A stretch of DNA of 64,000 bases from an uncultured Hyphomicrobiales bacterium. GTDB lineage: Bacteria; Pseudomonadota; Alphaproteobacteria; Rhizobiales; Xanthobacteraceae. The position numbers and the translations under genes are program-made. Location of the stretch: NCBI GenBank assembly GCA_903878085.1, contig CAIRGJ010000024.1:1-64000 (forward strand). Direction: 5' to 3'. Within the stretch, counting starts at the first letter, position 1, and every line of letters begins with the position of its first letter. The notes beneath the pieces were generated by a model. It saw only the letters and a program-made list of their open reading frames with translations. It was not told where the DNA came from and searched no databases. Positions 1 to 22,818 of the stretch are shown in pieces.

Positions 1-68
1 CCAATCAACACCTCAACCTGTCGCAGCTTCGCGACAATCTCTTCCGCCTTGTGTCTCTTCCTTGGCAT
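1..68 (-). CDS. IS3-family transposase OrfA, N-terminal fragment (runs off window)
   Basis: Read on the minus strand from ATG at 68, the first 22 codons give MPRKRHKAEEIVAKLRQVEV, the usual start of an IS3-family OrfA helix-turn-helix protein that binds the IS ends. OrfA is normally about 90-100 residues and is followed by OrfB (DDE integrase) through a programmed frameshift; both lie outside the window. Family assignment rests on this short stretch plus the adjacent terminal repeat. Confidence 0.7.
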   Translation of the reverse strand, partial: MPRKRHKAEEIVAKLRQVEVLI

Positions 69-128
69 TCCTCAGTCCTCCATCAGGCCATAAGCCATAC
101 TTCAGGGAGGACCACTTTTCAGGGGGCA
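1..128 (-). mobile_element. IS3-family insertion sequence, terminal end only
   Basis: The first 128 bases look like the left end of an IS3-family element that continues outside the window. On the minus strand there is a terminal sequence starting with TG at about 128 (tgccccctgaaaagtggtcc), a short leader, and then the start of an OrfA reading frame at 68. The TG/CA terminus and the OrfA start about 60 bp inside it are normal for IS3 elements. The boundary is inferred from the terminal pattern and from where uraH homology begins on the other side; the other end and target duplication are not visible. Confidence 0.7.
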
Positions 129-479
129 GACCATTCCCATGTGCTGGACACAATCTCGGGACGTCGGGCGGCGGGAGTCGCCGTAATTCTCTTCGAAATA
201 GCGGGGAAGGCTGAGGAGCGGATGATTGTGCGCATCGTCACCAACCAGGATGGATGTACCGATCGTCCGCTGATCGACGATCGTCCGGTGCCGATCGGTA
301 GCTACGAACCGCAGTTTACCATTGGCGACTATTTCTCCAAGAGCGGCACGCCACTCGCGGATCTGCCGTTTCTCGATTTCGTGCCCGCGCGCTTTGCAGT
401 CGCGGAGCCGGAAGGCCGCTATCACGTTCCGCTCCTGATCACGCCCTGGAGCTATTCAACCTATCGCGGAAGCCGATGA
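129..479 (+). pseudogene. uraH: 5-hydroxyisourate hydrolase, start removed by IS insertion
   Basis: The frame encodes the HIUase/transthyretin-like fold that hydrolyses 5-hydroxyisourate to OHCU in oxidative urate breakdown. The first family motif HVLDT is at 138-152 and the C-terminal signature YHVPLLITPWSYSTYRGS ends just before the stop at 477-479. Family members begin only a few residues before HVLDT, and here that part and the start codon are replaced by the IS3 end. The only upstream in-frame start is a GTG at 51, inside the IS. A second lesion is in the active-site motif: the family reads DGR, this gene reads DGC (tgt at 255-257), so the catalytic Arg is lost by what could be one C-to-T change. 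The gene is probably non-functional. No OHCU decarboxylase or urate oxidase is seen nearby. Confidence 0.82.
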
Positions 480-577: not shown

Positions 578-1951
578 TTACGATTCGTTCAGCTTCGCTG
601 CGTTCTGCACGTCGGTAGACGCTTTCGTCCAGTTACCCGTGCCGTTGAAATAGAGATTGAGGAGCACCGCGATTATCGCCGTCAGCAGGATGCCCGAATT
701 CAGTATCGGGCCGAGCTGGGTCGGTAGCTTGGCGAAGAAGGTCGGCGCCACCAGCGGAATCATGCCGAAGCCGATGGCGATGGCGACCACGTAAAGGTTG
801 TTGCGGCTGGTCTGGTAGTCGACACCGGCGAGAATGCGGATGCCGGTCGCGGCGACCATGCCGAACATCACGATGCCTGCGCCGCCGAGCACGAACAACG
901 GCACCGCCTCGACCAGCGCCCCGAGTTTCGGCACAAGTCCCATGGCAATCAGGATAACGCCGCCCGCAACGCATACGTACCGGCTCTTGATCCCGGTGAC
1001 GCCGACGAGCCCGACATTCTGCGAGAACGACGTGTACGGGAAGGTATTGAACAGGCCGCCAATCAAGGTGCCTAGGCCGTCGGTGCGCAGGCCGCGGGTC
1101 ATATCGGCAGGTTCGATCTTCTTGCCGGTCATGTCGCCGAGCGCCAGGAACATGCCGGCGGATTCGATCATGACCACGATCATGACGACGCACATAGTGA
1201 TGATCGAGACAATCTCGAACTTCGGCATACCGAACTGGAACGGATAGATTAGCGAGAACCACGGTGCGGCAACGACCTTGGCGAAGCTCATATGGCCGAG
1301 CGCCCAGGCGACGATGCAGCCGACGATGACGCCGATCAGCACCGCGATGTTGCGCATGAAGCCGGTGCCGAAGCGCGTACACACCAGGACGCACACCAGC
1401 ACGAAGGCGGCCATGCCGAGATTGAACGGATCCCCGTAGCCCGGCAGTGTCGGCAGCGTTGCGCCGGCGGCCCAGTTGACGCCGATGCGCATAAGCGAAA
1501 TGCCGATCATCAGGATGATCGAACCGGTCACCACCGGCGGGAACAGGGGCAACAGATAGCTGATCGCCGGGGCCACCAGCATGGTGAACACGCCAGCGGT
1601 CATAACGGCACCGAAAATTCCGAGAATGCCGAGATTCGGGTCGTTCGCCATGGCGAGCATCGGGCCCACCGCGGCGAAGGTCACCCCCATCATGACCGGC
1701 ATACGAATGCCGAACAGCGGACCGGCGCCGAAGGATTGAATCAACGTGACGATGCCGCAGGCAAACAGATCGGCATTGATTAGCAGCGCGATCTGTTCCG
1801 GTGGAAGCTTAAGTGCGCGGCCGATAATCAGCGGCACCGCAACGGCGCCCGCATACATCACCAAGACGTGTTGAAATCCGAGCGCTGCGAGTTTCGGCGC
1901 AGGCAGGATTTCATCCACGGGTGCGACCGTGGACGCATGATCAGATTTCAT
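578..1951 (-). CDS. NCS2-family purine (xanthine/urate type) permease
   Basis: A 457-residue polytopic membrane protein of the nucleobase-cation symport-2 (UraA/XanQ/PucJ) family, expected to import xanthine, urate or another purine by proton symport. The family signature QNVGLVGVTGIKSR is at about residues 310-323, and the hydrophobic profile fits the 14-segment UraA fold. The N-terminal segment with GFQHVLVMYAGAVAVPLI is also typical. I chose ATG at 1951 because it follows a G-rich ribosome-binding stretch and begins shortly before the conserved region; a GTG at 1975 would add eight residues. Its position between uraH and a hydantoinase remnant, at the edge of a xanthine-dehydrogenase operon, supports purine rather than uracil transport. 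Exact substrate cannot be read from the sequence. Confidence 0.9.
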   Translation of the reverse strand: MKSDHASTVAPVDEILPAPKLAALGFQHVLVMYAGAVAVPLIIGRALKLPPEQIALLINADLFACGIVTLIQSFGAGPLFGIRMPVMMGVTFAAVGPMLAMANDPNLGILGIFGAVMTAGVFTMLVAPAISYLLPLFPPVVTGSIILMIGISLMRIGVNWAAGATLPTLPGYGDPFNLGMAAFVLVCVLVCTRFGTGFMRNIAVLIGVIVGCIVAWALGHMSFAKVVAAPWFSLIYPFQFGMPKFEIVSIITMCVVMIVVMIESAGMFLALGDMTGKKIEPADMTRGLRTDGLGTLIGGLFNTFPYTSFSQNVGLVGVTGIKSRYVCVAGGVILIAMGLVPKLGALVEAVPLFVLGGAGIVMFGMVAATGIRILAGVDYQTSRNNLYVVAIAIGFGMIPLVAPTFFAKLPTQLGPILNSGILLTAIIAVLLNLYFNGTGNWTKASTDVQNAAKLNES

Positions 1952-2158
1952 GTTGAGCCCCCAATTATCCGGCACGCCTCGCCAGACGTCCTAGAATATT
2001 CCCCAAATTGGGTGTTCGGCAATCTAGGGGTATTCACGTATGGGGCATTCCACGATTTGCCCGTTGTTTGAGCAAGTTATACTCGGTGGACTTCGACGAT
2101 TGATTGGACAATAGGGAACTCCGGTCGGTGTCGCTCGACACCAATACGCGGTCGGGCG

Positions 2159-3447
2159 CCGGCCGGGGCCGAGGTCATTGAGGCCGGCGGCTGTTATGTC
2201 ATGCCCGGCGGGATAGATCCGCATACCCATATGCAACCCCCGATGATGGGCACGGTGGTGGCGGACGACTTCCTTACCGGCACAGCGGCGGCGGCTGCCG
2301 GCGGCACCACCACCATTCTCGATTTTGTCGGGCCCGAGCCGGGGCAATCGCCGTTCGAAGCGCTGGCGATCTGGCACAATCGCGCGGCCAAGTCGGCGAT
2401 CGACTACGGTTTCCACATGACGGTGTCGTGGTGGGGCGAGGCGTTTTCCGACGCCATGGCGACACTTGTCAGCGAGCATGGGATCGCCAGCTTCAAGTTC
2501 TTCCTCGCCTACAAGGGCCGCCTGATGCTGCCCGATCAAGACCTGCTCGCCGGCTTCCGCCGCTGTCGCGAGCTCGGCGCCCTCGTCCAAGTTCATGCGG
2601 AGAACGGCGAACTGATCGCCTATCTGCAACAGAAAGTCTTGGCGGACGGGATCAAGGGGCCGCTCGGGCATGTCCTGTCGCGGCCCTCGCAATGCGAGGG
2701 CGAGGCGACGACGCGTGCGATCACCATGGCCGAAATCCTCAATGTGCCGCTGTATGTCGTGCATGTCTCGGCGGCCGAGGCGGCGGAGGCATCGGCCACG
2801 CTAGGCAACGCGGCGCCAAGGTGATTGGCGAAACTTTGCCAGGTTTTCTCGCGATCGATGATTCGGTGTACCGCGCGGAGAATTTTGACCTCGCCGCCCG
2901 CCACGTGATGAGCCCGCCCTATCGGCCGAAGGGGCACCAGGAGGCGATCTGGCGGGCGATCGAGGCCGGAGTGCTCAGCACCACAGGGACCGATCATTGC
3001 TGCTTCACAAAGGCGCAGAAGCGCTTGGGCCACGACGACTTCACCAAGATCCCCAATGGCTGCGGCGGTGTCGAGGACCGCTTGCACGTGCTGTGGCATC
3101 TCGGCGTCAATAGCGGCCGGCTGACGCTGGAAAAATTTGTCGCACTCGCCGCGGCGAATGCCGCCAAAGCATTCAACCTATGGCCGCGCAAAGGCTCGCT
3201 CGCGGTGGAAGGCGACGCCGATCTCATCGTGCTCGATCCCGAGCGAACCAAGACCCTTTCGGCGGCGACCCAGCACCAGAACACCGATTTTTCTGTGTGG
3301 GAGGGAATGCAGGTCAAAGGCGTGGTCGTGCACACGCTGGCGCGCGGCCACCATGTCTGGGCCAACGGGGATTTGCGCGCCGAGCCGGGGGCAGGACGGT
3401 ATCTGCCGCGCAAGCCGTTCGGACCGGCTTACGAAGGGCCGCTCTAG
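2159..3447 (+). pseudogene. Dihydropyrimidinase/hydantoinase (HyuA type), 5'-truncated and frameshifted
   Basis: This is a cyclic-amidohydrolase that would open hydantoin or dihydropyrimidine rings. All metal-site motifs are still there, split over two frames: DPHTH (about 2216), the carboxylated-Lys motif FKFFLAYKG (about 2494), VQVHAENGE (about 2587), VVHVSAAEA (about 2755), and in the second frame GTDHCCF (about 2986). The frame changes at about 2790: adding one base after 2790 restores EAIGHARQRGAKVIGET, which fits the family. Homology begins only at about 2159 (PAGAEVIEAGG), so some 40 N-terminal residues and the start codon are missing, and the sequence before it encodes nothing recognisable. 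It is convergent with the D-aminoacylase gene. The 5' loss makes it a pseudogene even if the frameshift were a sequencing error. Confidence 0.88.
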
Positions 3448-3498
3448 AATTTTGCTTGCCTGCAAGCGGGGTGGTGATCGGCGCCCGCTCCAGGCAGT

Positions 3499-5145
3499 TC
3501 AAGCCGCTCGCAGCGGGCTGGTCAGGATGCGGCCGGGGAATATCGACGGCGCGATCAAACGGCCATGATCGAGCACGCACTCGCCGTGGACCCACACCAT
3601 GTCGATGCCGGCCGGGGCGACCAAGGGGTCGAGGTAGTCGTTGCGGTCGGCGACGGTCTCGGGATCAAGCAGCACCAGCGAGGCGTCGGCGCCGACAGTC
3701 AGCGTCGGGTCGGGTAAATTGAGGAAGCGGCAAGGCAGCGTCGCCATACGCCAGATCATCTGCTCCAGCGGAATCCCCATCTCGCGTCCCATGCGCAGCG
3801 CCTTGGGAAAGGCACCAAGCGCGCGCGGGTGCGGCTTCTGTCCCGGCCCGGGCATCAGGCCGTCGGTGCAGATCGCCATGGTCGGCCGGCGGAAAAACCG
3901 CTCGACCGTGGCGTCGTTACCGTAATGGGTGATGATCGCGATTTCGCCGTCGTTCTCTGCAAAGAAATCGAATACTGCGTCGTAGGCGGCGTCGCCGTCA
4001 GGTTCCGAAATGCCGCTCGCTCGCGCGACATCGGAAAGCCGTGCGCCGAGATGGCGGTCGCCGACGCCGGGTTTCACGCCTGCAATCTGGATGCCCTGCA
4101 ACCCGCCGCAGAAGCCGATGAAATTATCCCAGCTTTTGGTGTCGTGCCGTATCTTGTCCGCCATGGCCCGGCGCAGGGACGGATCGCGCAGCCGCGCGAG
4201 GAACTCGGCGCGCGTGCCGGCGCGCATCTCGGGCGGAAAGATCGCATCGCCGGTCGTCGAGCCGGCGGTGTAAGGGTACATATTTTCCATGGTGGGGATG
4301 AGCGAGTCGGCATCCGCGAGAATGTCTTCCAGTCGCGTCATGGCGGCGTAGTTGCGCGCGCCGGCGATCTTGGAATGCTCGTTGCAGTAGCCGCCGCCGC
4401 CGTCGACCGCCGCCTCCACCACCTCCTTGAGGCTGGCGACGATGTTGTCGCTCTCCGAGCGCAGATGCGGAAACAGCGCCCCCGGCTTAACCTCGTTGAA
4501 GGCCCGCACCAGCGCCGTAATCTCGCGCTGGTCGCAATAAACCGCCGGGTTATAGACCAGCCCGGTCGAGAGCCCGAGCGTCAGTCCTGCCTCGCGGCGG
4601 ATAACGTCCTGCATGGCCGCGATCTCGCCGTCGGTGGCGACGCGGGCGAGGTTCTCCATCACCACGCGGCGTACCGCTGAATGGCCAAGGTAAAGCCCCA
4701 TATCGGTGACCGAGCGGCCGTGATGCCAGGCCAGGAATTCGGCCACCGAGCTCCAGCTCCAGTCACCCTCGATCGCGCCGTCGAGCGGCTTGAGCTGGGC
4801 GGCATATTGCGAGCGCTGGCGTTCCACCACGGGCGCGGGCGACAGTCCATCGACGCCACAGATGCGTTTGGTCACGCCGCCAAGAATGGCCAACTCGCAA
4901 CTGCGCGGCAGCCCACGGTCGCCGATGATCGTGCCGCCGAGTGCGCCATGATTGTGGGTGTCGACGAATCCGGGCGCCAGCGCGCGACCGGCGGCATCCA
5001 CCGTTCGGTCGGCGTTAGCGGCATCGCTTGGCGGTACGTCGCCGAGGCGGACGATGACGTCGTTCTCGATCAGCACATCGCCGGAATACGGCGGCGTGTG
5101 GCCGTCGCCGTTGACGATGCGCGCATTGCGAATGAGCTGGCGCAT
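3499..5145 (-). CDS. N-acyl-D-amino-acid deacylase-like amidohydrolase
   Basis: A 548-residue member of the amidohydrolase-3/D-aminoacylase family, which removes N-acyl groups from D-amino acids with a metal centre. The N-terminal beta-sandwich strand (LIRNARIVNGDG), the metal motif GFVDTHNHG at about residues 58-66, EHSKIAGARNY around residue 260 and the C-terminal composite-domain sequence DASLVLLDPETV are visible. The family usually has HxH after GFID; here it is HNH, which still gives two metal-binding His. The ATG at 5145 shares one base with the TGA of the upstream amidohydrolase (TGATG), so the two are translationally coupled. In this context it may act on an N-carbamoyl or N-acyl product of the hydantoin/purine route; that is inference. 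Confidence 0.85.
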   Translation of the reverse strand: MRQLIRNARIVNGDGHTPPYSGDVLIENDVIVRLGDVPPSDAANADRTVDAAGRALAPGFVDTHNHGALGGTIIGDRGLPRSCELAILGGVTKRICGVDGLSPAPVVERQRSQYAAQLKPLDGAIEGDWSWSSVAEFLAWHHGRSVTDMGLYLGHSAVRRVVMENLARVATDGEIAAMQDVIRREAGLTLGLSTGLVYNPAVYCDQREITALVRAFNEVKPGALFPHLRSESDNIVASLKEVVEAAVDGGGGYCNEHSKIAGARNYAAMTRLEDILADADSLIPTMENMYPYTAGSTTGDAIFPPEMRAGTRAEFLARLRDPSLRRAMADKIRHDTKSWDNFIGFCGGLQGIQIAGVKPGVGDRHLGARLSDVARASGISEPDGDAAYDAVFDFFAENDGEIAIITHYGNDATVERFFRRPTMAICTDGLMPGPGQKPHPRALGAFPKALRMGREMGIPLEQMIWRMATLPCRFLNLPDPTLTVGADASLVLLDPETVADRNDYLDPLVAPAGIDMVWVHGECVLDHGRLIAPSIFPGRILTSPLRAA

Positions 5146-6374
5146 CACTCAGCCAATTCCAGCACGAGGCGCAGCAGCACGTCCGCACCGGCGGCGAGAT
5201 CGGCCGGGGCGGTGTATTCTTCGACATTGTGGCTGATGCCGCCAACGCTCGGCACGAAGATCATGCAAGCTGGACAGACCGCCGCCATGATCTGAGCGTC
5301 GTGGCCGGCCCCGCTCGGCAAGCGCTTCACCGGCAGGCCGAAATCCTTGGCGATCGCCTCGACACGATCCACCAAATTCGGCGTGAAAGCGACCGGGGCG
5401 AAACGGGCGAGCGTGCGCCGCGTCAGCCCGACGCCCTCGGCGGCAGCGATTTCATCGGCGTAGGCGAACAGGCGGCGCTCCGCCTCTTGCAGGCGTGCCT
5501 CGTCGGTGTTGCGCAAATCGACCGTCATCACGACGTGATTGGGCACCACATTGACGAGATTGGGCGACATCGTCAGCGCGCCCACGGTGGCGACCTGGTA
5601 GCCGCCGATCTCCTTCGCCAGCTTGCGGGCGAACACGGCGATTTTGGCGGCGACATAGCCGGCGTCCTTGCGCATGCGCATGGGCGTGGTGCCGGCATGG
5701 TTCGACTGGCCCGTGAGGGTGAATTCGCTCCACGAAATGCCTTGCACGCCTTCGACCGCGCCGATGCGGAAGCCTCCCGCCTCTAGTACCGGTCCCTGCT
5801 CGACATGCAGCTCGACATAGGCGTGGGCGCGCGGCTGGCCAACCGGCTCGGGACCGGCATAGCCGATGCGCGTGAGCTCATCGCCCGCAGTCAGTCCGTC
5901 GATGCCCTTGGTGGCAAGCGCCACCGCCAATGGCAGTTCGCCGGTATAGACCAGGCTGCCGAACATGTCGGGTTGGAAGCGAGAGCCCTCCTCGTTGGTG
6001 AAGAAGGCAACCGCCACCGGGCGCTTAGTGGTGATCTCGGCATCGTTCAGTGTGGCGATCACCTCAAGCCCGGCGAGCACGCCGAGGGTACCGTCATAGC
6101 GGCCGCCGGTGCGCACCGTATCGATGTGACTCCCGGTCATGACCGGTGGTCCGTCTTCGCGCCCGGCGCGCACGCCGACCACATTGCCGATGGTGTCGAT
6201 TTTCACCGCCAGACCGAGGTCGCGCATCCACCCCACGACTCGGTCGCGCCCGGCGCGGTCCTCGTCGCTCAGCGCCAGCCGGCACACGCCGTCGCCGGCA
6301 ATGCGCCCGATTTGAGCCAATTCCTGCAGGCGTTGGCTGAGCCGATCGCCGTTGATGCGAAGATTGTCCTGCAT
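5145..6374 (-). CDS. M20-family allantoate/N-carbamoyl-L-amino-acid amidohydrolase
   Basis: A 409-residue zinc hydrolase of the HyuC/AllC/beta-ureidopropionase group, which cleaves N-carbamoyl amino acids, ureidopropionate or allantoate to release ammonia and CO2. Metal and catalytic motifs: GSHIDTVRTGGRYDG at about residues 80-94, FTNEEGSRF at about 126, HVEQGPVLE at about 186, GAGHDAQ at about 355 and GISHN near 383. Length is normal for the family. It is transcribed divergently from the RpiR regulator across a 98-bp region with the operator palindrome, and is coupled to the D-aminoacylase gene. In the urate cluster of enteric bacteria the hydrolase YgeY fills a comparable slot. Which ureido substrate it uses is not decidable here. 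Confidence 0.9.
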   Translation of the reverse strand: MQDNLRINGDRLSQRLQELAQIGRIAGDGVCRLALSDEDRAGRDRVVGWMRDLGLAVKIDTIGNVVGVRAGREDGPPVMTGSHIDTVRTGGRYDGTLGVLAGLEVIATLNDAEITTKRPVAVAFFTNEEGSRFQPDMFGSLVYTGELPLAVALATKGIDGLTAGDELTRIGYAGPEPVGQPRAHAYVELHVEQGPVLEAGGFRIGAVEGVQGISWSEFTLTGQSNHAGTTPMRMRKDAGYVAAKIAVFARKLAKEIGGYQVATVGALTMSPNLVNVVPNHVVMTVDLRNTDEARLQEAERRLFAYADEIAAAEGVGLTRRTLARFAPVAFTPNLVDRVEAIAKDFGLPVKRLPSGAGHDAQIMAAVCPACMIFVPSVGGISHNVEEYTAPADLAAGADVLLRLVLELAE

Positions 6375-6416
6375 TGCACCGTTCCCCGCCGGGGGGCCTG
6401 TCGGGTTCTATTCGAT

Positions 6417-6469
6417 TATGAAACATAAATTTCCTTATTGCAAGGATATGAAACATATGTTTCATATCC
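6417..6469. promoter_or_regulatory. Probable RpiR operator: 26-bp perfect palindrome plus upstream half-site
   Basis: Positions 6444-6469 are a perfect 26-bp palindrome: half-site ggatatgaaacat followed by its exact reverse complement. The core tatgaaacat (6447-6456) is repeated in the same orientation at 6417-6426, exactly 30 bp away, about three helical turns. It lies in the divergent intergenic region between the M20 hydrolase gene and the rpiR-type gene, ending 3 bp before the regulator's ATG. RpiR-family dimers bind such GAAA...TTTC palindromes, so autoregulation and control of both directions is the likely role. The symmetry is seen directly; the assignment to this regulator is inferred from position. 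Confidence 0.75.
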
Positions 6470-6472
6470 GCT

Positions 6473-7309
6473 ATGCACTCGCTCGTTCAACGAATTCGCG
6501 ACACCTATGCTGGACTGCCGGTTGGCGAGCGGAAGCTGGCCGAGCTGATTCTCGAGATGCAAGGCGATTTTGCGGCCTATTCGGCGACCGAATTGGCGTC
6601 CCGCGCCGGCGTATCCAAGGCGACCGGCGCCCGGCTGGTGCGCCGCCTCGGCTACGCCGATTTCCATGAAATGCGTGAGCAGGCGCGCAACCGGTTTCAA
6701 AGCGGCTCGCCGCTCGCCGAGTTGTCCGGCACACAGGGTCTCGAAGGAACGCTGGCCCACCATCTCGGGCACGACATTGCCTGCCTCACGCGTACCGTCG
6801 AGACGATTCCGGCAGAGCGCGCGCAAGCCGCCGTGAACATACTTGCCGGCGCACAGCGCGTGACCGTGGTCGGATTCCGCAACAGCTATCCGCTCGCCTT
6901 CTACGCCCGCGAGCTGCTGGTGCACGTCCGCCCGCAGGTGAACTTGCTGCCGGTTTCCGGCCAGACCGCGTCCGAGGAATTGTCCGACCTCGGACCGACC
7001 GACGCTATTTTGGCATTCGGCTTCCGCCGGCGTCCGCCGGTGCTGGGACGAATTCTCCGCATCGCCGCCGCGGCCAAGACGCCTACCGTCTTGCTGGGCG
7101 ATTCCTCGCTCGGGGAAATCGGCAAAGCGGCCAATGTCGTGTTTCATTGCTTCAGCCGCGGGGCGCGCCTGTTTGACTCCTACGTCGCCGCCATGAGTCT
7201 CGTGAATTACCTGGGCTCTGGTGTCGCCCTGGCGCTCGGCACGTCGGCGCATGAGCGTCTGCGACGCATCGAGTCGCTGCATGAAGAATTTAGCGACCTC
7301 GAGCCCTGA
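6473..7309 (+). CDS. MurR/RpiR-family transcriptional regulator (HTH + SIS)
   Basis: A 278-residue regulator with an N-terminal HTH_6 domain (about residues 1-77; ELASRAGVSKATGARLVRRL is the recognition unit) and a C-terminal SIS domain (about 115-250) that normally binds a phosphosugar or other ligand. The ATG at 6473 gives the standard family N-terminus (LVQRIRDTYAGLPVGERKLAELIL). No Shine-Dalgarno sequence precedes it, because the palindrome occupies that space, so the message may be leaderless or weakly translated. It heads the xdhD-ssnA-PLP-ygfK operon (16 bp to the next gene) and faces the M20 hydrolase gene. It is presumably the local regulator, with a pathway intermediate as ligand (inference). 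Confidence 0.9.
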   Translation: MHSLVQRIRDTYAGLPVGERKLAELILEMQGDFAAYSATELASRAGVSKATGARLVRRLGYADFHEMREQARNRFQSGSPLAELSGTQGLEGTLAHHLGHDIACLTRTVETIPAERAQAAVNILAGAQRVTVVGFRNSYPLAFYARELLVHVRPQVNLLPVSGQTASEELSDLGPTDAILAFGFRRRPPVLGRILRIAAAAKTPTVLLGDSSLGEIGKAANVVFHCFSRGARLFDSYVAAMSLVNYLGSGVALALGTSAHERLRRIESLHEEFSDLEP

Positions 7310-7325
7310 TCAGGAATTAATCACG

Positions 7326-9958
<2,633 letters not shown>

Positions 9959-9968
<10 letters not shown>

Positions 9969-11149
9969 CGCAACCACTTCTGATCGGCCCCGACCGCCAC
10001 GGGCGCCGTGTCGCGGTGGCGGACGGGCTCGTCGTCGCTGCGCCGCCCGTGGGCGCGGACGTGCTCTCCTGCGCCGACGGCGAAATTTTCTCCGGCGCGG
10101 TGTGCAGCCATACGCATCTCTACAGTGGGCTTGCGCGTTATGGCATGCCGGCTGCCAGTCCAGCGCCGGAAAACTTTTCCCAGATTCTCGAGCGAGTGTG
10201 GTGGCGGCTCGATCGCGCCCTCGACGCCGATACGCTGCGCGCTTCCGCCACGGACTATGTGGCGCGTGCGTTGCTCGCCGGCACGATCGCGATTGTCGAT
10301 CATCACGAATCGCCCAACCTGATCGAAGGCTCGCTCGCGATTCTCGCCGACGTTTGCCAGCAGCTCGGCATGCGCGCGCTCCTTTGTTATGGTGCGAGTG
10401 AACGCAATTTCGGCAGCGAAGAAGCCGATCGCGGCTTGGCCGAATGCCGCAAGGTTCCCGCTTCGCCGTTGGTCCGCGCCCTGGTCGGACTGCATGCGAG
10501 CTTCACCGTCTCCGACGACACGATCCGCTCGGCCGGAGAGCTTGCACGCGAACTCGGCACCGTCGTTCACGTGCACGTCGCCGAGGACTTGGCGGACGTC
10601 GAGGACGCCCGATCACGAGGCTACGATGGTCCGCTGGAGCGTCTGGCGAAGCTCGGTGCGCTGATCCCCGGCTCGATCCTGGCACATGGCGTGCACTTGA
10701 GCCGCGAACAGGTGGAGTCCACGGAAGAGCAGTCGTGCTGGCTGGTGCAAAATCCGCGCTCTAATGAAGGCAATCGCGTCGGTTATGCGCAGAACTTGCG
10801 CTATGCGCAAAAGGTTGCACTCGGTACCGACGGCTGGAACGGCGACATGGCGGAGGAAGAGGCCGCGTTGTTTCGCCTCGCCAAAGCTCACGGGGACGAT
10901 AGCGCGGCCGGCCGCCTGGCGGCGGGACTTGCACTGATCGCCGAGCGATTTTCCGCGGGTCCGGAGCCGCTTAAGCCCGGCGCATTGGGCGATCTCGTGG
11001 TGCGCGAAAACGGTCGTGTCCGCCACGTCGTTGTGGGCGGCCGTATTGTGGTTGAAAACGGCTGCCTCGCGGGCCGAGCCATGGATGCGATTTCGGCAGA
11101 CGCGCAAAAACATGCTGGCCGGCTTTGGGACCGCATGGCGGCACTTTGA
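9959..11149 (+). CDS. SsnA-like metal-dependent aminohydrolase
   Basis: A 396-residue amidohydrolase of the chlorohydrolase/cytosine-deaminase group closest in layout to SsnA, which accompanies xdhD and ygfK in enteric and clostridial urate clusters. Metal motifs: SHTHLYSG at about residue 51, VHVHVAED at about 204, LAHGVHLS at about 241 and GTDGWNGD at about 290. The ATG at 9959 overlaps the end of the XdhD-type gene by 10 bp, showing tight coupling. The expected reaction is hydrolytic ring opening or deamination of a purine-derived intermediate. The N-terminal beta-sandwich is short but present (LLIGPDRHGRRVAVADGLVV). Assignment as SsnA is by motifs and neighbours. Confidence 0.85.
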
Positions 11150-11170
11150 TGAAAGACGAAAGGAACAGCT

Positions 11171-12671
11171 ATGGCGCGCCTCGGACTTGAACGCACCGTT
11201 ATCGATGCGGCGGTACTCGAACGAACAGCCGCGCGCTTGGGGCAAGCCGGCGTGCTGCTGCCCACGATCGCGCAGCTGAAAGATCCCTCGTCGATTCCCG
11301 CCGTCGTTCGCGCCGCGCTCGCCGATATCGATCCCGACGGCCCCGACGCGCTAAATCTTTTCCGCGTGCACTGGTTCAACGGCGCCGATCGCAAGAGCCT
11401 CGTCGCGTTTCCTGATTACTTGGAGCTGCCGGCTGAACTGACCGGGGTGAAGGCACGCATCGTGCTGGCGCTCGGCAACCGCTTCCCCATGATCCGCGCC
11501 CACAAGGTGCTCGCCGCCTATGGCTGCCTGGTGCCGCGGCTGGTGACCGGCCAGTTCGATCCGGCGCGCGATCGCGCGGTATGGCCTTCGACCGGCAATT
11601 ACTGCCGCGGCGGCGTCGCTATCTCGCGTATTCTCGGCTGCCACGGCATCGCCGTGCTGCCGGAGAATATGAGCCGCGAGCGGTTCGACTGGCTGGACCA
11701 ATGGGTGGCGAGCCCCGCCGATATCGTCCGCACGCCCGGCTCGGAGAGCAACGTCAAGGAGATCTACGACACCTGCGCGGCGCTCGACCGCGAGCCCACC
11801 AATATCATCTTCAACCAGTTCTGCGAGTTCGGGAACTATCTGATCCACCGCGTCTGTACCGGCGCGGCAATGGAAAAGCTGTTCGCGGCGCTGACGCAAC
11901 AGCGGCCGGGGGTCAAGCTTGCCGCCTTCGTCTCTGCCTCGGGCTCGAGCGGCACACTTGCCGCCGGCGACCATCTCAAGGAGAAGCTCGGCGCGCGCAT
12001 CGTGGCGGGGAAGCGGCCGAATGCCCGACGTTGCTTTATAACGGTTTCGGCGAGCACAACATCCAGGGCATTGGCGATAAGCACGTTCCCTATATCCACA
12101 ACGTGATGAACACCGACGTGGTCGCCGGCGTCAGTGACCGGTCGACCGACACGCTGATGGTGCTGTTCAACACCGAGGTCGGGCGCAAATACCTGGTCGA
12201 GCGCCGCGGTGTCGATGCCGGCCTCGTCGCACGGCTCGGCGATCTCGGCCTGTCGTCTTTGTGTAACATGCTGGCGGCGATCAAGACCGCCAAGTACTTC
12301 GATCTCGGTTCGGACGACGTGATCCTCACGGTCGCGACCGACGGCGCGGCGATGTACGGCAGCGAGATCGCCAAGGTCGTGACGCGCGATTTCGGTAACC
12401 GGTTCGATGAGGTGGCGGCTGGCGAGACCTGGGGCCGGGCGCTTGCCGGCGCTACCACCGATCATTTCATGGAAATGACGCACATCGATCGCAAGCGCGT
12501 GTTCAATCTGGGTTACTTTACCTGGGTGGAACAGCAGGGCGTATCGCTTGAGGAATTTTCTGTGCGCGCCAAGCAGTCGTTCTGGGATGGCCTACTCGAT
12601 CTGGTGCCCGCCTGGGACGCGCTGATCGCCAAGGTCAACGCGAGGAGCGGCGCCGGCAAGACACGCGGTTT

Positions 12672-12675
<4 letters not shown>
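11171..12675 (+). pseudogene. Fold-type-II PLP enzyme of the urate cluster, broken by a one-base loss in a G run
   Basis: The two halves make one PLP-dependent protein of about 500 residues related to cysteine synthase/threonine synthase, of a kind found beside SsnA/YgfK/XdhD in purine-degrading clusters. The likely Schiff-base Lys is in [12 protein letters not shown] (about residue 110) and the phosphate-binding loop is STGNYCRGG (about 140). The first frame runs 11171-12106, the second resumes at about 12010 and ends at 12675. Adding one G to the run at 12007-12010 restores [20 protein letters not shown] without a gap. Conservation is good on both sides, so the event is either very recent or a sequencing error. 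It starts 21 bp after ssnA and overlaps the next PLP gene by 4 bp. A beta-elimination role, for example on diaminopropionate, is plausible but unproven. Confidence 0.82.
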
Positions 12676-13973
<1,298 letters not shown>

Positions 13974-14062
13974 TACCCGATGATCTCGCCGCGGGCCAGG
14001 AATACTACGGATACCGAACGGCCGCCGCCGCGGTTATGATGCAATCGCTGTCGAGAGGATAT

Positions 14063-16120
14063 ATGGCTGAACTGATCCCCGTTCCGTTCAAAGTCTTGGC
14101 GACCCGACTGTTTCGCGAGCTCGCGCAAAAGAAGGCCGCCTTCGACCTACCGGTTGCGCGCTTCTTTCAAGGCGCCACCGTCGACCTGTCGCGTACCGTG
14201 CACGGCCAGCGCGCGTCCAGCCCGTTTGGCCCCGCCGCCGGGCCGCATACCCAACTCGCCCAGAACATCGTGCTGTCGTGGCTCGTGGGCGGCCGGGTGA
14301 TCGAGCTCAAGACGGTGCAGATCAAGGACGACCTCGTTATCCCGCGCCCCTGCATCGACATGCAGACCGTCGGCTTCAACGTGGAATGGTCGCAGGAGCT
14401 CACGCTCGAGCAGTCGCTCGAGGAATACGTCAAAGCCTCGATGCTGATCGACATGCTCAAGGCGTCGGGATGGGCGCCCAGCTACGCCGACACCGTGTTC
14501 GACATGAGCGTCGGTTACGACCTCGCCGGCATCCGCTCGGCGCGCGTGTGCAGCTTTATGGCCGGCTTGATGGATGCGACGCCGATCGTCGCCCGGCTGC
14601 GCGAGCAGATCCCGCCTTCGCTCACCCATCTGCGCGATACGCCGTTCGTGACCCGCATTTCCGATACCGTCACTCTCTCCACCTTCCACGGCTGCCCGCC
14701 GCAGGAGATCGAGGCTATCGCCGCGTTCCTGCTGCAAGAGGTCGGGCTGCATGTCGTGGTCAAGCTCAACCCGACGCTGCTCGGTCGCGCGCAGGTGACG
14801 GAGATCCTGCACGAGCGGCTGGGCTACCGCGAGCTCAACGTACCGGCTGCCGCGTTCGACAAGGACGCCACCTGGGAGCAGGTGACAGGCTTTGTCGATC
14901 GACTCGGCACCCTGGCGCATTCGCTCGGACGCGGCTTCGGCGTCAAATTCTCCAACACCCTGCTGGTAGACAATCACAAGAGCTTCTTCCCGGCCAGCGA
15001 GAAGGTAATGTACCTCTCCGGCCCGCCATTGCACGTGCTGGCGATGCTGCTGGTGCGCCGCTTCCGCCAAATATTCGGCGATCGTCTTCCGATCTCGTTC
15101 TCCGGCGGGATCGACGCCGGTAATTTTGCCGACGCGGTCGCGCTCGGGTTGCAGCCAGTCAGCGTGTGCTCGGACATGTTGAAGAGCGGCGCTTATTCCG
15201 GCTACGCGCGCGGCGCGCGCTATCTCGTCAATCTGGTCAAGCGGATGAACGCTTCGGGCGCTGCCGACATCGACCAGTTCGTCATCAAAGCCTATGGCCA
15301 TGCGCAAACCGCGCTCGACAGTCTCGCGCTGCTGGCGCAGCGCGCGCAAGCCTGCCGCGCCGCGCTCGAGCAAGGCGGAGATCTGCGTGCAACCGCGGGC
15401 GAGGCATTCGACGCCTGGGTCTCGGCCGCTCGCTTGCTCAATACCGAGACTTATGCGGATCGGATGCTGTCAGATCCACGTTATGCCGCCGCCGACAATG
15501 CCACGCCGCCGAAGAAGATGGGAACGCGACTCACATTGTTTGATTGCATGACCTGCGACAAGTGCATTCCCGTCTGCCCAAACGACGCCAACTTCGTGTT
15601 GGCGACCCCCAAGGGACAGCTGCCAATCGAGCGCCTGATGCGAAACGGCGCAGGGTGGAGAATCGAGACGATGGGGGTGATCACGCACGACAAGCCATGG
15701 CAGATCGGCGTGTTTGCCGACGCCTGCAATGAGTGCGGCAACTGCGATGTGTTCTGTCCGGAGGATGGCGCGCCGTATCTCAGCAAGCCGTTGTTTTTTG
15801 GTAGTGTCGCCGCTTGGGCGCAGACGCCCACCCGCGACGGCTTCGCCTACGAAAAAGTCGGCGACGGGCTGCGCATACACGCCCGGCTGAAGGGACGCGT
15901 CGTTTCGCTCGAGACCGAAGGTAGTAAGGTGCGCTATCGCGGGAACGGGTTCGATCTGCGGCTAGATCCCGTCGATCCCGCTGGCAGCGCGGAGGGACTT
16001 TGCGACGGCCCGGTCGATCTCGCGCCGTTGCGGATTATGGAACTGATCCGCAGCGCTGTTACCGCTCCGGACGCCGTCAATTACATCAGCGCGGCCCTGC
16101 TCGCGACGACGTCGATATAA
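14063..16120 (+). CDS. YgfK-like Fe-S oxidoreductase without the FAD/NAD domain
   Basis: A 685-residue protein matching the two ends of YgfK. The N-terminal half is a dihydroorotate-dehydrogenase-like barrel ([13 protein letters not shown] at about 56-68, [24 protein letters not shown] at about 206, [17 protein letters not shown]). The C-terminal part carries two 4Fe-4S motifs, [12 protein letters not shown] at about 495 and [12 protein letters not shown] at about 555, then PYLSKPLFF and a small tail. E. coli YgfK is over 1000 residues because a glutamate-synthase-small-subunit-like FAD/NADPH domain sits between the two halves; that domain is absent here and the frame is intact. ATG 14063 has AGAGGA just upstream; ATG 14036 is less likely. 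Expected role: reduction of a purine or pyrimidine-like ring using electrons delivered from outside, plausibly by the ferredoxin encoded 23 bp downstream. Confidence 0.85.
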
Positions 16121-16143
16121 AGCCAAGAACCAAGGACAAAGCC

Positions 16144-16344
16144 ATGGCTTACATGATTGTGCCTTCCCTATGCACAGCGTGCGGTGCGTGCGAATTCGAA
16201 TGCCCGAACAAGGCCATCAGCATGGCGGCCGACGTCTACGCAATCGACCCGTCCAAGTGCCAGGAATGCAAGGGCGAGTACGATACCCCGCAATGCGCCA
16301 CGGTATGCCCGATCCCCAACACCTGCGTGCCGTCGCGAAGTTAA
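16144..16344 (+). CDS. Small 2[4Fe-4S] ferredoxin
   Basis: A 66-residue ferredoxin with two cluster motifs: [12 protein letters not shown] at about residues 10-21 and [18 protein letters not shown] at about 41-58, the second with the insertion typical of Alvin/YfhL-type ferredoxins. It begins 23 bp after the YgfK-like gene behind AAGGACAAAGCC and is probably in the same operon. Family members often have a C-terminal helix of 15-25 residues; here the protein ends right after [10 protein letters not shown], about 40 bp before the IS1182 remnant, so the tail may have been lost to that insertion. Most likely it passes electrons to the YgfK-like or XdhD-like protein, neither of which has a flavin domain. 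Confidence 0.85.
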
Positions 16345-16383: not shown

Positions 16384-16985
16384 CAAACAGACCTTCCGCC
16401 AGCGGAACGTTTCGATCTCTATCCCGCCAGGCTCATGGGTGACAGTGCCTATGGCTCGGCCGTGATGCTCGGCTGGCTGGTCCATGAGCATGGCATCGAG
16501 CCGCATGTGACTGTCTTCGACAGATCGGCTCGCACGGACGGCACCTTCTCACGCGACGACTTTACCTACGACCACGAGCGAGGCGTTTACGCCTGTCTTG
16601 GCGGCAGGATGCTGACCATGAAGGGAACGCTCGTGAATGACGGTGCAACCGTACTCTACCGCGTGAGCAAACATGACTGCGAAGCCTGTCCGTTAAAACC
16701 CACTGCTGCCCAAAGGAGCCGGCCCGCAAGGTGCCGCGTTCGATCCACGAGGGGGCGCGTGATATGGCCCGTAAGATCGCAAAATCTTGGGAAGGCCGAA
16801 CGTCTCGCCGACTACGTAAGAAGATCGAGATGCTGTTCGCGCACCTCAAGCGCATTCTCAAGCTGGATCGGCTCCGACTACGAGGACCGAACGGTGCTCG
16901 CGATGAGTTCCTGCTCGCAGCAACCGCCCAGAACCTCCGGAAACTGGCCAAGCTGATACCGATACCGAACCTGAAACCAGCCTGA
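16384..16985 (+). pseudogene. IS1182-family transposase, C-terminal fragment, frameshifted
   Basis: The first frame (to about 16720) gives ERFDLYPARLMGDSAYGSA and HGIEPHVTVFDRSARTDGTF, the DDE-catalytic region of IS1182 transposases. The second frame (about 16735 to 16985) gives RRLRKKIEMLFAHLKRILKL, then LRLRGPNGARDEFLLAATAQ, the conserved C-terminus with the catalytic Glu region. At least one frame change near 16720-16740 separates them, and the N-terminal half is missing. It cannot be an active transposase. Confidence 0.85.
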
Positions 16986-20995: not shown

Positions 20996-21706
20996 ATGAA
21001 ACCCGTCGCGGTCGCTATCGTCTGCAAGACCCCGGCTGCGGGCGCGTCGAAAACGCGCTTGTCGCCGCCGCTGCGGCCCGAAGAGTGCGCGGCGATCTCC
21101 GGTTGCTTCATCCGCGACCTGTCGGCGACCATCCAGTCGCTGGCCGCCGATGGCGGCGTGCAAGGTTGCGCGGTCTATACGCCGCTCGGCTCGGAGACGG
21201 CGTTGCGCCATTTGCTGCCGGACGCGTTCGAGCTGACCTTGCAGGGCGAGGGCGACCTGGGTGCGCGGCTTCTGCAAGCCACCGCCGATCTGCTCGATGC
21301 CGGTTACGCCGGGGCCATCCTGGTCAATTCCGATTCGCCCACTTTGCCGAAAGCCATTTTACGCGAGGCCGCCGACGCCGTGCGGCAGGGCGACAATGTC
21401 GTGCTCAGCCCGGCCCTCGATGGCGGCTACACCCTGATCGGCCTGTCGCGTCCGCACGCGCGGTTGTTCGATGCCATGCCTTGGAGCACCGATGCGGTGT
21501 ATCGACTGACTGTGGCGCACGCGGCCGAAATCGGACTATCGGTCATGAACGTGCCCGGATGGTATGACGTCGATGACGCCACGTCATTTCGTATGCTTGA
21601 GGCGGAATTCGACGGCATCCGGCCCGCCTTCGCAGCCCGGCATCTCGTGGCCGCCGACGCGCCCGCGACGAGGCAATTCGTACTAGATCGCCGCGACGGC
21701 CGATGA
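20996..21706 (+). CDS. TIGR04282/DUF2064-family nucleotidyl/glycosyltransferase-like protein
   Basis: A 236-residue GT-A-fold protein. It starts with VAIVCKTPAAGASKTRLSPP, the CofC/GlmU-like nucleotide loop, has VNSDSPTLP as the DxD-like motif (about residues 108-116), then LSPALDGGYTLIGL and WSTDAVY. The family was first described as a transferase associated with radical-SAM/selenium domains. The last four bases overlap the start of the FAD oxidoreductase gene (ATGA), so they are coupled. The substrate is unknown; arsenosugar or other sugar-nucleotide transfer has been proposed for relatives. Confidence 0.8.
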   Translation: MKPVAVAIVCKTPAAGASKTRLSPPLRPEECAAISGCFIRDLSATIQSLAADGGVQGCAVYTPLGSETALRHLLPDAFELTLQGEGDLGARLLQATADLLDAGYAGAILVNSDSPTLPKAILREAADAVRQGDNVVLSPALDGGYTLIGLSRPHARLFDAMPWSTDAVYRLTVAHAAEIGLSVMNVPGWYDVDDATSFRMLEAEFDGIRPAFAARHLVAADAPATRQFVLDRRDGR

Positions 21707-22818
21707 GCGGGCCTGGCCCAAAAGACGTTGTCCTCGTCGGCGGCGGCCACGCCCATGTTCATGTGCTGAGGGCCTTGCGCGCGGAGCCGGGCGTGCGCGT
21801 GACGCTGGTGACGCGCGACTTGGTGACGCCATATTCTGGCATGCTGCCCGGCGTGATCGCGGGGCTGTATGCGCCAGTGCAGGCCCATATCGATCTTGCG
21901 CATTTGGCGGTGGCAACTGGCGCGCAGCTCCTGCACGCCGAGGCAATCGGTCTCGACCGCGCCAACAAGCGCGTGATGGTCGCAGATGGCGCACCGATCC
22001 CTTATGATGTGGCGTCGATTAACGTCGGCATCGCGCCGGCGCTGGCGCCGATTGCGGGGGCTGCCGAGCATGCCATCGCGGTCAAACCGATCGGCTCGTT
22101 CCTCGACAAATTCGACATTCTGCTGGCGCGCGCGGGGCGGCCGTACGGTCCGCGGCGGATCGTGGTGATCGGCGGCGGTGCCGGCGGTGTCGAGCTGCTG
22201 CTGTCGATCCGGTCGCGTCTCATGGCGCAAGCGTGCGCTACGGCATTTTCCTTCGCGCTCATCACCGATGGCGAAATTCTCGCCACGCATAATCCGCGCG
22301 TGCGTGCCGCCTTCCGCCAGATTTTCGCCGCCCGCAACATCGTCACCTACGAGCACGCGCGCGCCCGCGCGATTACTGCGGACGGGGTCGAATTGCAAAA
22401 CGGTGAAATTATTGCCGCCGACGCCGTGCTGGTCACGACCGACGCCGCCGCGCCAAGCTGGTTTAGCTCGACCGGTCTGGCGCTCAATGTCGAAGGCTTC
22501 CTCGCCGTCAACGCAATGCTGCAATCGGCCAACGATCCGGACGTGTTCGCCGCCGGCGATTGCGCCGCTTTGCCGTCGCCGCGCGAAAAGGCCGGTGTCT
22601 ATGCGGTGCGGGCCGGTCCGGCGCTCGCCGCCAATTTGCGCCGCCATGTGCACGGCGAACCGCTGCAAGCCTGGCGCCCGCAACGCCGGCATCTGGCGCT
22701 GATCTCCACCGGTGAGCGCTATGCTATTGGCTCGCGCGGCGTCTTCAAAGTCGAGGGCGCCTGGGTTTGGACGCTCAAAGACTGGATCGACCGCCGCTGG
22801 ATGCAGCAGTATCGATGA
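21703..22818 (+). CDS. FAD-dependent NADH-dehydrogenase-like oxidoreductase (TIGR03169 type, SelD-associated)
   Basis: A 371-residue two-dinucleotide-domain flavoprotein. The FAD motif DVVLVGGGHAHVHVLRAL is at residues 8-25, the NAD(P) motif IVVIGGGAGGVELLLSIR at about 152-169, and the FAD-ribityl motif DPDVFAAGDCA at about 281. The layout and the GHAHV motif match the family also found fused to the N-terminus of selenide,water dikinase (SelD). No SelD domain follows here and no selD is in the window. Coupling with the upstream TIGR04282 transferase suggests a shared role, possibly in selenium or sulfur metabolism. It is convergent with the next gene, 7 bp apart. Confidence 0.82.
   Translation: MSGPGPKDVVLVGGGHAHVHVLRALRAEPGVRVTLVTRDLVTPYSGMLPGVIAGLYAPVQAHIDLAHLAVATGAQLLHAEAIGLDRANKRVMVADGAPIPYDVASINVGIAPALAPIAGAAEHAIAVKPIGSFLDKFDILLARAGRPYGPRRIVVIGGGAGGVELLLSIRSRLMAQACATAFSFALITDGEILATHNPRVRAAFRQIFAARNIVTYEHARARAITADGVELQNGEIIAADAVLVTTDAAAPSWFSSTGLALNVEGFLAVNAMLQSANDPDVFAAGDCAALPSPREKAGVYAVRAGPALAANLRRHVHGEPLQAWRPQRRHLALISTGERYAIGSRGVFKVEGAWVWTLKDWIDRRWMQQYR

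What the first reader, a model, noticed from the sequence alone, without database searches (positions are those of the whole stretch)
2159..16344. Alphaproteobacterial version of the anaerobic-type urate/purine degradation cluster
The operon rpiR-xdhD-ssnA-PLP-PLP-ygfK-ferredoxin, with divergent M20 hydrolase and D-aminoacylase genes and a hydantoinase remnant, matches the functional set (xdhD, ssnA, ygfK, hyuA, ygeY-like hydrolase, PLP lyase) known from enteric and clostridial urate catabolism. There the genes ygeX, ygeY, ygeW, ygfK, ssnA, hyuA and xdhD are reported to be needed. Differences here: no YgeW-type carbamoyltransferase, two non-YgeX fold-type-II PLP enzymes, a D-aminoacylase-like protein, a domain-reduced YgfK and its own ferredoxin and RpiR regulator. 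This could be a variant non-urate-oxidase purine route in a soil bacterium, and it sits beside a dead uraH of the oxidative route.
Basis: partly seen in the sequence, partly recalled or inferred. Interest (0 to 1): 0.82.

Follow-up and report, generated by a model that had tools for sequence, protein, structure and literature searches.

The report
Ferredoxin-type reductive urate degradation cluster
A Hyphomicrobiales bacterium carries a partly decayed, ferredoxin-style version of the recently described anaerobic pathway that breaks down uric acid by reducing it, and its relatives show that parts of this pathway are swapped like cassettes and that an uncharacterised enzyme pair usually travels with it.

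Summary
The genes are there as described and the purine reading holds. The cluster is a variant of the reductive urate pathway published in 2025 (PMC12507026): a fused XdhD-type molybdoenzyme, SsnA, two PALP enzymes, a short YgfK, a 66-residue two-cluster ferredoxin, an M20 amidase, a D-aminoacylase-like protein (UacY type) and a UacT-like permease. The same-genus genome G582 has the same operon with genuine YgeW, a carbamate kinase, YgeY and intact HyuA; in the window the slot between hyuA and rpiR holds M20 plus D-aminoacylase instead. New relative to what I could read: the short YgfK without the NAD(P)H module is a separate, deep group; a ferredoxin gene sits in the operon; the PALP1-PALP2 pair is tied to XdhD-SsnA in several phyla and is not YgeX. 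Corrections: uraH is not visibly dead; the genome also has a urate oxidase; hyuA and the first PALP gene are broken here, so the local pathway may be failing. A strict 'PALP pair replaces YgeX' rule is not proven, since 11 of 26 YgfK genomes have both. The paper had already found SsnA clusters in several phyla. All functions are inferred.

The parts
51..479 (+). uraH-like 5-hydroxyisourate hydrolase, open frame, start codon uncertain (flanking gene)
   Evidence: TIGR02962 101.7 bits, cut-off 87.45, profile 6-113/113
578..1975 (-). NCS2 permease, UacT-like (candidate urate importer)
   Evidence: 53.9% identity over 445 residues to E. coli UacT; TIGR03173 521.5 bits, cut-off 414.15
2159..3447 (+). 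broken hyuA (D-hydantoinase) remnant: N-terminal end missing, frame shift near 2820
   Evidence: two TIGR02033 pieces, profile 36-247 and 248-454; intact 467-residue frame in G582; dN/dS to G582 0.100 and 0.069
3499..5148 (-). D-aminoacylase-like amidohydrolase, UacY type (candidate for removing one ureido group)
   Evidence: PF07969 50.0 bits, cut-off 29.7; best solved relatives include D-aminoacylase 1m7j and N-acyl-D-glutamate deacylase 3gip/3giq
5145..6374 (-). M20 hydantoinase/carbamoylase-family amidase (candidate for the other ureido group, in place of YgeY)
   Evidence: TIGR01879 411 bits, cut-off 204; solved relatives include N-carbamoyl-L-amino-acid and N-carbamoyl-beta-alanine hydrolases
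6473..7309 (+). RpiR-family regulator
   Evidence: PF01418 39.2 and PF01380 25.9 bits, both over cut-off; RpiR matches lie beside the XdhD genes in G582, G429, G444, G469 and G546
7326..9968 (+). XdhD-type molybdoenzyme: two [2Fe-2S] motifs fused to the Mo domain, no FAD subunit in the operon
   Evidence: TIGR03311 905.7 bits, cut-off 830.45; keeps E802, R880, E1261 of bovine xanthine oxidase 1fo4 in alignment
9959..11149 (+). SsnA-like aminohydrolase, start overlaps the xdhD stop
   Evidence: PRK07203 270.2 bits, below its cut-off of 444; HxH, H, H, D positions of E. coli SsnA kept in alignment (ligand role recalled)
11171..12675 (+). PALP1, cysteine synthase/CBS-like fold-type-II PLP enzyme, frame-shifted near 12008-12027 in this genome
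   Evidence: two frames; one frame in G582; relative from L102 folds like cysteine synthase/CBS, pLDDT 92.8
12672..13973 (+). PALP2, threonine-synthase-like PLP enzyme with Cys-rich N-terminal stretch
   Evidence: PF00291 124.6 bits, cut-off 35; model pLDDT 92.9, best fold match threonine synthase 2zsj
14063..16120 (+). short YgfK: FMN-type domain plus two [4Fe-4S] motifs, NAD(P)H/FAD module absent (longest frame starts 14036)
   Evidence: TIGR03315 396.8 bits, best stretch profile 5-394 of 1012, cut-off 835.3; alignment to E. coli YgfK; short-form group in tree
16144..16344 (+). 66-residue ferredoxin with two [4Fe-4S] Cys motifs
   Evidence: translation; 89% identical homolog next to ygfK in G582

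Best explanation
A ferredoxin-type variant of the reductive urate pathway. UacT-like permease imports urate. XdhD reduces urate to 2,8-dioxopurine (yanthine). Short YgfK reduces and SsnA opens the ring to ureidomethyl-hydantoin. HyuA opens the hydantoin to 2,3-diureidopropionate. M20 and the D-aminoacylase-like protein remove the two ureido groups by hydrolysis, in place of YgeW, YqeA and YgeY. The PALP1-PALP2 pair, not YgeX, probably handles the resulting 2,3-diaminopropionate. Since neither XdhD nor YgfK here has an NAD(P)H-binding partner in the operon, the small ferredoxin is the likely electron donor. RpiR probably regulates. Shown here: gene identities, order, domain loss, cassette exchange, broken hyuA and PALP1. 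Inferred: every reaction, the ferredoxin's role, the substrate of the PALP pair. In this genome the local pathway may be failing unless an unlinked hydantoinase (contig C54) stands in for HyuA and the PALP1 shift is a sequencing error.
For: Published biochemistry of the homologous steps, including UacY replacing YgeW and a ferredoxin proposed where the FAD domain is absent (PMC12507026, Results part 1 of 3 and Discussion read). UacT-like permease adjacent. Same genus, G582: same operon with YgeW (661.8 bits, cut-off 453), a carbamate kinase (PRK12352 398.5, cut-off 266) and intact HyuA. The slot between convergent hyuA and rpiR holds YgeY-YgeW-YqeA in G582 and G429/L107, M20-DAA in the window, L104 and L116; in genus g151, G405 has M20-DAA beside rpiR while G444, G469, G489 and G520 have YgeY and YgeW there (in G444 and G469 a long ygfK lies between the two). 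In the 80 PALP1 loci DAA occurs in 9 and YgeW in 15, never together (by margins alone P 0.14). PALP2 in 14 of 397 order genomes, all 14 among the 17 with YgfK at E below 1e-90. Purine-contacting residues kept in XdhD.
Against: XdhD is only 25% identical to E. coli XdhD, fails its family model TIGR03313 (228 bits, cut-off 1101.9), and its E802/R880 resemble oxidising xanthine dehydrogenases, where E. coli XdhD has Q and N; direction of reaction is therefore open. SsnA and YgfK fall below their curated cut-offs. hyuA and PALP1 are broken here. selD is not found over cut-off although TIGR03311 is named selenium-dependent. The genome has a urate oxidase, so the oxidative route is available. No expression, growth or enzyme data exist. 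The DAA has Asp where 9g5m has the Cys of the D-aminoacylase metal site (role of that Cys recalled).
Confidence: 0.72

Rival explanations
1. The cluster works in the oxidative direction: XdhD hydroxylates hypoxanthine or xanthine and the rest degrades a different heterocycle or hydantoin, with YgfK running as a dihydro-compound dehydrogenase.
For: XdhD passes the xanthine dehydrogenase model TIGR03311 and keeps E802, R880 and E1261 of bovine xanthine oxidase. The genome has urate oxidase and a uraH ORF.
Against: SsnA, YgfK, HyuA and YgeW/UacY homologs recur together in relatives, which in characterised organisms serve urate reduction (PMC12507026). XdhD-SsnA-PALP1 order in 27 of 80 PALP1 loci.
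Confidence: 0.15
2. The cluster is a dead or dying relic in this genome and does nothing (does not exclude the best explanation for its relatives).
For: hyuA lacks its N-terminal part and is frame-shifted; PALP1 is frame-shifted; an IS1182 transposase piece lies just after the ferredoxin.
Against: The other frames are open; dN/dS to G582 is 0.07-0.22 for the 11 gene pieces where it could be computed, broken genes included (uraH not computable), so decay is recent or partly a sequencing error. A D-hydantoinase over cut-off exists on contig C54, though 41% identical to HyuA of G582 and unlinked.
Confidence: 0.35
3. The PALP pair is a plain substitute for YgeX (a narrower form of the best explanation).
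For: 11 of 26 YgfK genomes have PALP2 without YgeX, 4 have YgeX without PALP2, 0 have neither. G546 has no strong PALP2 and has YgeX beside its UacT-like gene (79% complete). YgeX is in 2 of 80 PALP1 loci (L151, L164).
Against: 11 of 26 have both; ten of these carry YgeX in the YgfK cluster and PALP2 elsewhere; zero-with-neither has P 0.09 by margins. PALP1 sits beside YgeX without PALP2 in G267 and L164, and L151 has PALP1, PALP2 and YgeX together. PALP2 has Cys where E. coli YgeX has D120 and no counterpart of the D189 loop (an imperfect alignment that does not pair the PLP lysines).
Confidence: 0.4

Closest known systems
E. coli reductive urate cluster (ygeW-ygeX-ygeY-hyuA-yqeA ... ygfK-ssnA-ygfM-xdhD)
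   Same: Homologs of XdhD, SsnA, YgfK (FMN domain and Fe-S part), HyuA (broken) and the UacT permease.
   Different: No match to E. coli YgeW, YqeA, YgeX, YgeY or YgfM in the window at 1e-5 (tblastn); YgfK lacks the NAD(P)H module; own ferredoxin; RpiR regulator; PALP1-PALP2; UacY-type and M20 hydrolases; XdhD keeps its [2Fe-2S] cysteines.
C. difficile variant with UacX and UacY (PMC12507026)
   Same: D-aminoacylase-like UacY in place of YgeW, XdhD without YgfM, reductase without FAD domain, ferredoxin proposed as donor.
   Different: Reductase is a short YgfK, not UacX; no YgeX over cut-off; the M20 protein belongs to the hydantoinase/carbamoylase family. No C. difficile sequence was compared here.
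G582, same genus as the window
   Same: Same rpiR-xdhD-ssnA-PALP1-PALP2-ygfK-fdx order, about 80-91% protein identity.
   Different: YgeY-YgeW-YqeA cassette and intact HyuA instead of M20-DAA and a remnant.
Selenium-dependent molybdenum hydroxylases (PMC2276186, passages read)
   Same: XdhD passes TIGR03311.
   Different: No selD over cut-off in this genome; no match to E. coli YqeB or YqeC in the window at 1e-5 (not searched genome-wide).

Membership tests
Reductive urate pathway cluster | XdhD/XdhA-type molybdoenzyme next to SsnA | tested here: met
   TIGR03311 over cut-off; SsnA start overlaps XdhD stop
Reductive urate pathway cluster | Orthologue of E. coli XdhD by model TIGR03313 | tested here: not met
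   228 bits against 1101.9
Reductive urate pathway cluster | SsnA by curated models | tested here: not met
   TIGR03314 249.7/455.5, PRK07203 270.2/444; 0 of 397 order genomes reach the TIGR03314 cut-off; ligand positions kept
Reductive urate pathway cluster | YgfK by curated model TIGR03315 | tested here: not met
   396.8 bits, cut-off 835.3; part between about residues 395 and 905 of E. coli YgfK absent; the long YgfK of G444 passes with 903.9
Reductive urate pathway cluster | Intact HyuA | tested here: not met
   remnant only; intact in G582 and G546
Reductive urate pathway cluster | YgeW or UacY | tested here: met
   PF07969 over cut-off, the family the paper uses for UacY
Reductive urate pathway cluster | M20-family hydrolase (YgeY position) | tested here: met
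   PF01546 103.2 bits, but of the TIGR01879 family, not matched by E. coli YgeY at 1e-5
Reductive urate pathway cluster | PALP-family lyase (PF00291) | tested here: met
   PALP2 124.6 bits, cut-off 35
YgeX / diaminopropionate ammonia-lyase | TIGR01747 over cut-off anywhere in the genome | tested here: not met
   best 55.3 bits, cut-off 274, at another locus
YgeX / diaminopropionate ammonia-lyase | Active-site Asp120 and Asp189 (roles recalled) | tested here: inconclusive
   Cys170 is invariant in the 52-row PALP2 alignment and aligns with D120 in all 8 rows compared; D189 loop absent in those 8; but that alignment does not pair the PLP lysines
YgeX / diaminopropionate ammonia-lyase | Activity on D/L-2,3-diaminopropionate | not testable with these tools
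   needs purified protein
Selenium-dependent molybdenum hydroxylase | selD in the genome | tested here: not met
   best 52.4 bits, cut-off 125
Oxidative urate route | Urate oxidase in the genome | tested here: met
   PF06181 429 bits, contig C62

The most novel reading that the evidence does not exclude
A widespread, ferredoxin-driven branch of the reductive urate pathway, with its own deep YgfK subfamily and a previously unassigned two-enzyme PLP module (PALP1 plus PALP2, for instance an isomerase and a lyase working on opposite stereoisomers) that finishes the pathway without YgeX, and whose ureido-removal steps are exchanged as cassettes between phosphorolytic (YgeW-YqeA-YgeY) and hydrolytic (UacY-M20) forms.
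Probability: 0.4. Interest if true: 0.72.

Novelty: new variant of a known kind. Interest (0 to 1): 0.56.

Why it matters
[quoted passage not shown] Here a ferredoxin gene lies in the operon, the two ureido-removal modules trade places at one locus, and a PLP pair stands where YgeX is expected. The cluster, or at least the PALP pair, is found in records of named strains of Rhodoplanes, Pleomorphomonas, Telmatospirillum, Propionivibrio and Roseiarcus (record titles), so these questions could be tested. It also warns that counting any PF00291 protein near SsnA as YgeX, as the legend of Figure 3g in PMC12507026 does, may merge different enzymes.

Tried and rejected
Strict replacement of YgeX by the PALP pair: my first hypothesis from local gene order; rejected as a rule when the genome-wide searches found PALP2 in 10 genomes of genus g102 that also carry YgeX in their cluster. 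Domain loss in YgfK as recent: rejected by the tree, with the caution that long branches meet in it. Residue E606 of E. coli XdhD as a marker of urate reduction: the alignment around it was gapped and unclear, so it was not used. XdhD as selenoenzyme: selD not over cut-off. YgfK against solved structures by sequence: 0 matches at E 0.001. PALP1 as pathway-specific: some relatives (L152, L159, L172, L179) lie in other gene neighbourhoods. DAA and YgeW never in one locus: kept only as weak support, P 0.14.
Full report
What was checked. The window is contig C24 of a 4.41 Mb draft genome with completeness 99.29% and contamination 1.59%. The chain rpiR-xdhD-ssnA-PALP1-PALP2-ygfK-ferredoxin is tightly packed: the ssnA start lies inside the end of xdhD, the PALP2 start overlaps the PALP1 stop, and on the other strand M20 and the D-aminoacylase-like gene overlap by four bases.

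Two broken genes and one that is not. HyuA is a remnant: the profile match begins at residue 36 and is split into two frames. Compared with G582, synonymous change far exceeds amino-acid change in both broken genes (dN/dS 0.07-0.14), as in the intact ones (0.10-0.22), so the damage is recent, or for PALP1 possibly an assembly error (the ratio could not be computed for uraH, whose synonymous sites are saturated). uraH, called dead, is an open frame that passes TIGR02962 over profile positions 6-113 of 113. Its start codon is unclear.

What the enzymes are. XdhD passes TIGR03311 but not the model of E. coli XdhD. In the alignment to bovine xanthine oxidase 1fo4 it keeps E802, R880 and E1261 (their roles in substrate contact and catalysis are recalled). 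E. coli XdhD has Q and N at the first two and lacks the [2Fe-2S] cysteines. SsnA falls below its curated cut-offs but keeps the metal-ligand positions of E. coli SsnA. E. coli YgfK matches the short YgfK over its residues 7-395 and again over 905-1001; the part between is missing. In a long relative, G444, that part is what glutamate-synthase-type NAD(P)H models match. In a tree of the N-terminal domain with 31 rows, 28 of them different, 26 short rows (window, Alpha- and Betaproteobacteria, Acidobacteriota, Myxococcota, Bdellovibrionota) are separated from 5 long rows with 100/100 support; the split is drawn as 0.33 and 1.35 changes per column on the two sides of a midpoint root. Rows with matches under about 330 residues were left out, and the tree tool warns that long rows meet, so finer placements are unsure. 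The permease at 578-1975 is 54% identical to E. coli UacT. The genome also has a urate oxidase, so an oxidative route may coexist.

Cassette exchange. In G582 (same genus) the order is ferredoxin-ygfK-PALP2-PALP1-ssnA-xdhD-rpiR, then divergently ygeY-ygeW-yqeA, then a convergent hyuA. Its YgeW passes both curated models. In the window the same slot between rpiR and hyuA holds M20 and the D-aminoacylase-like gene in the same orientation. L104 and L116 have the window's arrangement, L107/G429 that of G582. Within genus g151, G405 has M20-DAA beside rpiR and G444, G469, G489 and G520 have YgeY and YgeW there, in G444 and G469 with a long ygfK between them. Among the 80 PALP1 loci, DAA is in 9, YgeW in 15, both in 0; since many loci are cut short this non-overlap is weak on its own (P 0.14 over 80, 0.06 over the 43 with XdhD or SsnA). 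The argument rests on position. It agrees with the published statement that UacY takes the place of YgeW in C. difficile (PMC12507026, Results part 1 of 3 read). A third form is seen in G180 of family f11: YgeX-M20-nitrilase-family hydrolase-YgfK-XdhD-SsnA.

The PALP pair. PALP2 lies directly after PALP1 in 62 of 80; XdhD or SsnA is in 43 of 80 loci, many of which are short contigs; YgeX is in 2 of 80. Titles of loci that hold PALP2 together with XdhD or SsnA include Alpha- and Betaproteobacteria, Acidobacteria, Anaeromyxobacter, Oligoflexia, Actinobacteria, Chloroflexota and Gemmatimonadetes. In the order, PALP2 at E 1e-60 occurs in 14 of 397 genomes, all inside the 17 with YgfK at E below 1e-90 (27 further genomes had only weak YgfK matches, E 3e-7 or worse; hypergeometric P 3e-23, not corrected for kinship: they fall in 4 genera). 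In the family it occurs in 11 of 351: 9 have YgfK, one (G534, 58% complete, not among the YgfK matches) has the XdhD-SsnA-PALP-ferredoxin cluster, and one (G574) has the pair alone as far as its contig goes. Of 26 genomes with YgfK, 22 have PALP2 over 700 bits, 15 have YgeX over cut-off, 11 both, 0 neither. G546 has no strong PALP2 (79% complete) and has YgeX beside its UacT-like gene; the YgeX of G469 lies beside an XdhD-like gene on another contig. So the pair is linked to the pathway, but is not simply exchanged for YgeX. Structure models (pLDDT 92.8 and 92.9) put PALP1, taken from relative L102, with cysteine synthase and cystathionine beta-synthase, and PALP2 with threonine synthase; a diaminopropionate ammonia-lyase (5ygr) is rank 26 for PALP2. 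PALP2 residue C170 is invariant in 52 rows and aligns with D120 of E. coli YgeX in the 8 rows compared; the D189 loop has no counterpart in those 8, but the same alignment fails to pair the PLP lysines, so it is not sound throughout.

Mechanism and likelihood. I hold it likely (0.72) that the set encodes reductive urate breakdown with ferredoxin as donor. Steps shown: gene content and order only. Steps inferred: all reactions, the ferredoxin's role, and the PALP pair's substrate. The main doubt is direction at XdhD, because its contact residues resemble oxidising enzymes. The second is whether this strain still runs the pathway: HyuA would have to be supplied by the unlinked hydantoinase on contig C54, 41% identical to HyuA of G582.

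Novelty. The pathway itself is in print (PMC12507026 and the commentary PMC12990295, part 1 of 2 read), and the paper already reports SsnA clusters in Pseudomonadota, Bacillota, Chloroflexota, Actinomycetota, Spirochaetota and Elusimicrobiota, so wide distribution as such is not new. My searches for the variant listed no paper whose title or shown abstract deals with a short YgfK with its own ferredoxin or a PALP pair in this pathway; only openly licensed papers are held, and the study cited there as Liu et al. was not read. PMC4016543 and PMC2276186 were read in passages.

Noticed in passing
16435-16956: Fragment of an IS1182-family transposase just after the ferredoxin gene (NF033551, 64.1 bits, below its cut-off of 270).
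   Followed up: no
20996-22818: A TIGR04282-type glycosyltransferase-like gene next to a TIGR03169 'Nterm_to_SelD' oxidoreductase (418.9 bits, over cut-off), in a genome without selD over cut-off.
   Followed up: partly
41098-43374 and 56529-57827: Two more xanthine-dehydrogenase-like Mo-binding regions in the window; the genome gives 25 MoCoBD_1 matches.
   Followed up: no
L152:9995-15576, L159:9995-15589, L172:9926-15728, L179:9989-13228: A PALP1 relative is followed by genes that by eye look like CoA-transferase subunits and, in three of the four, a serine dehydratase; PALP1 thus has a second, different neighbourhood (names not tested).
   Followed up: partly
G267 (L036, L051): Long YgfK, SsnA, YgfM-like and XdhD on one side and PALP1, a nitrilase-family hydrolase, M20, YgeX and TRAP transporter genes on the other: yet another arrangement.
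   Followed up: partly
L039 (E. coli XdhD): E. coli XdhD lacks the cysteines of the [2Fe-2S] domain in alignment, while the window enzyme keeps them.
   Followed up: no
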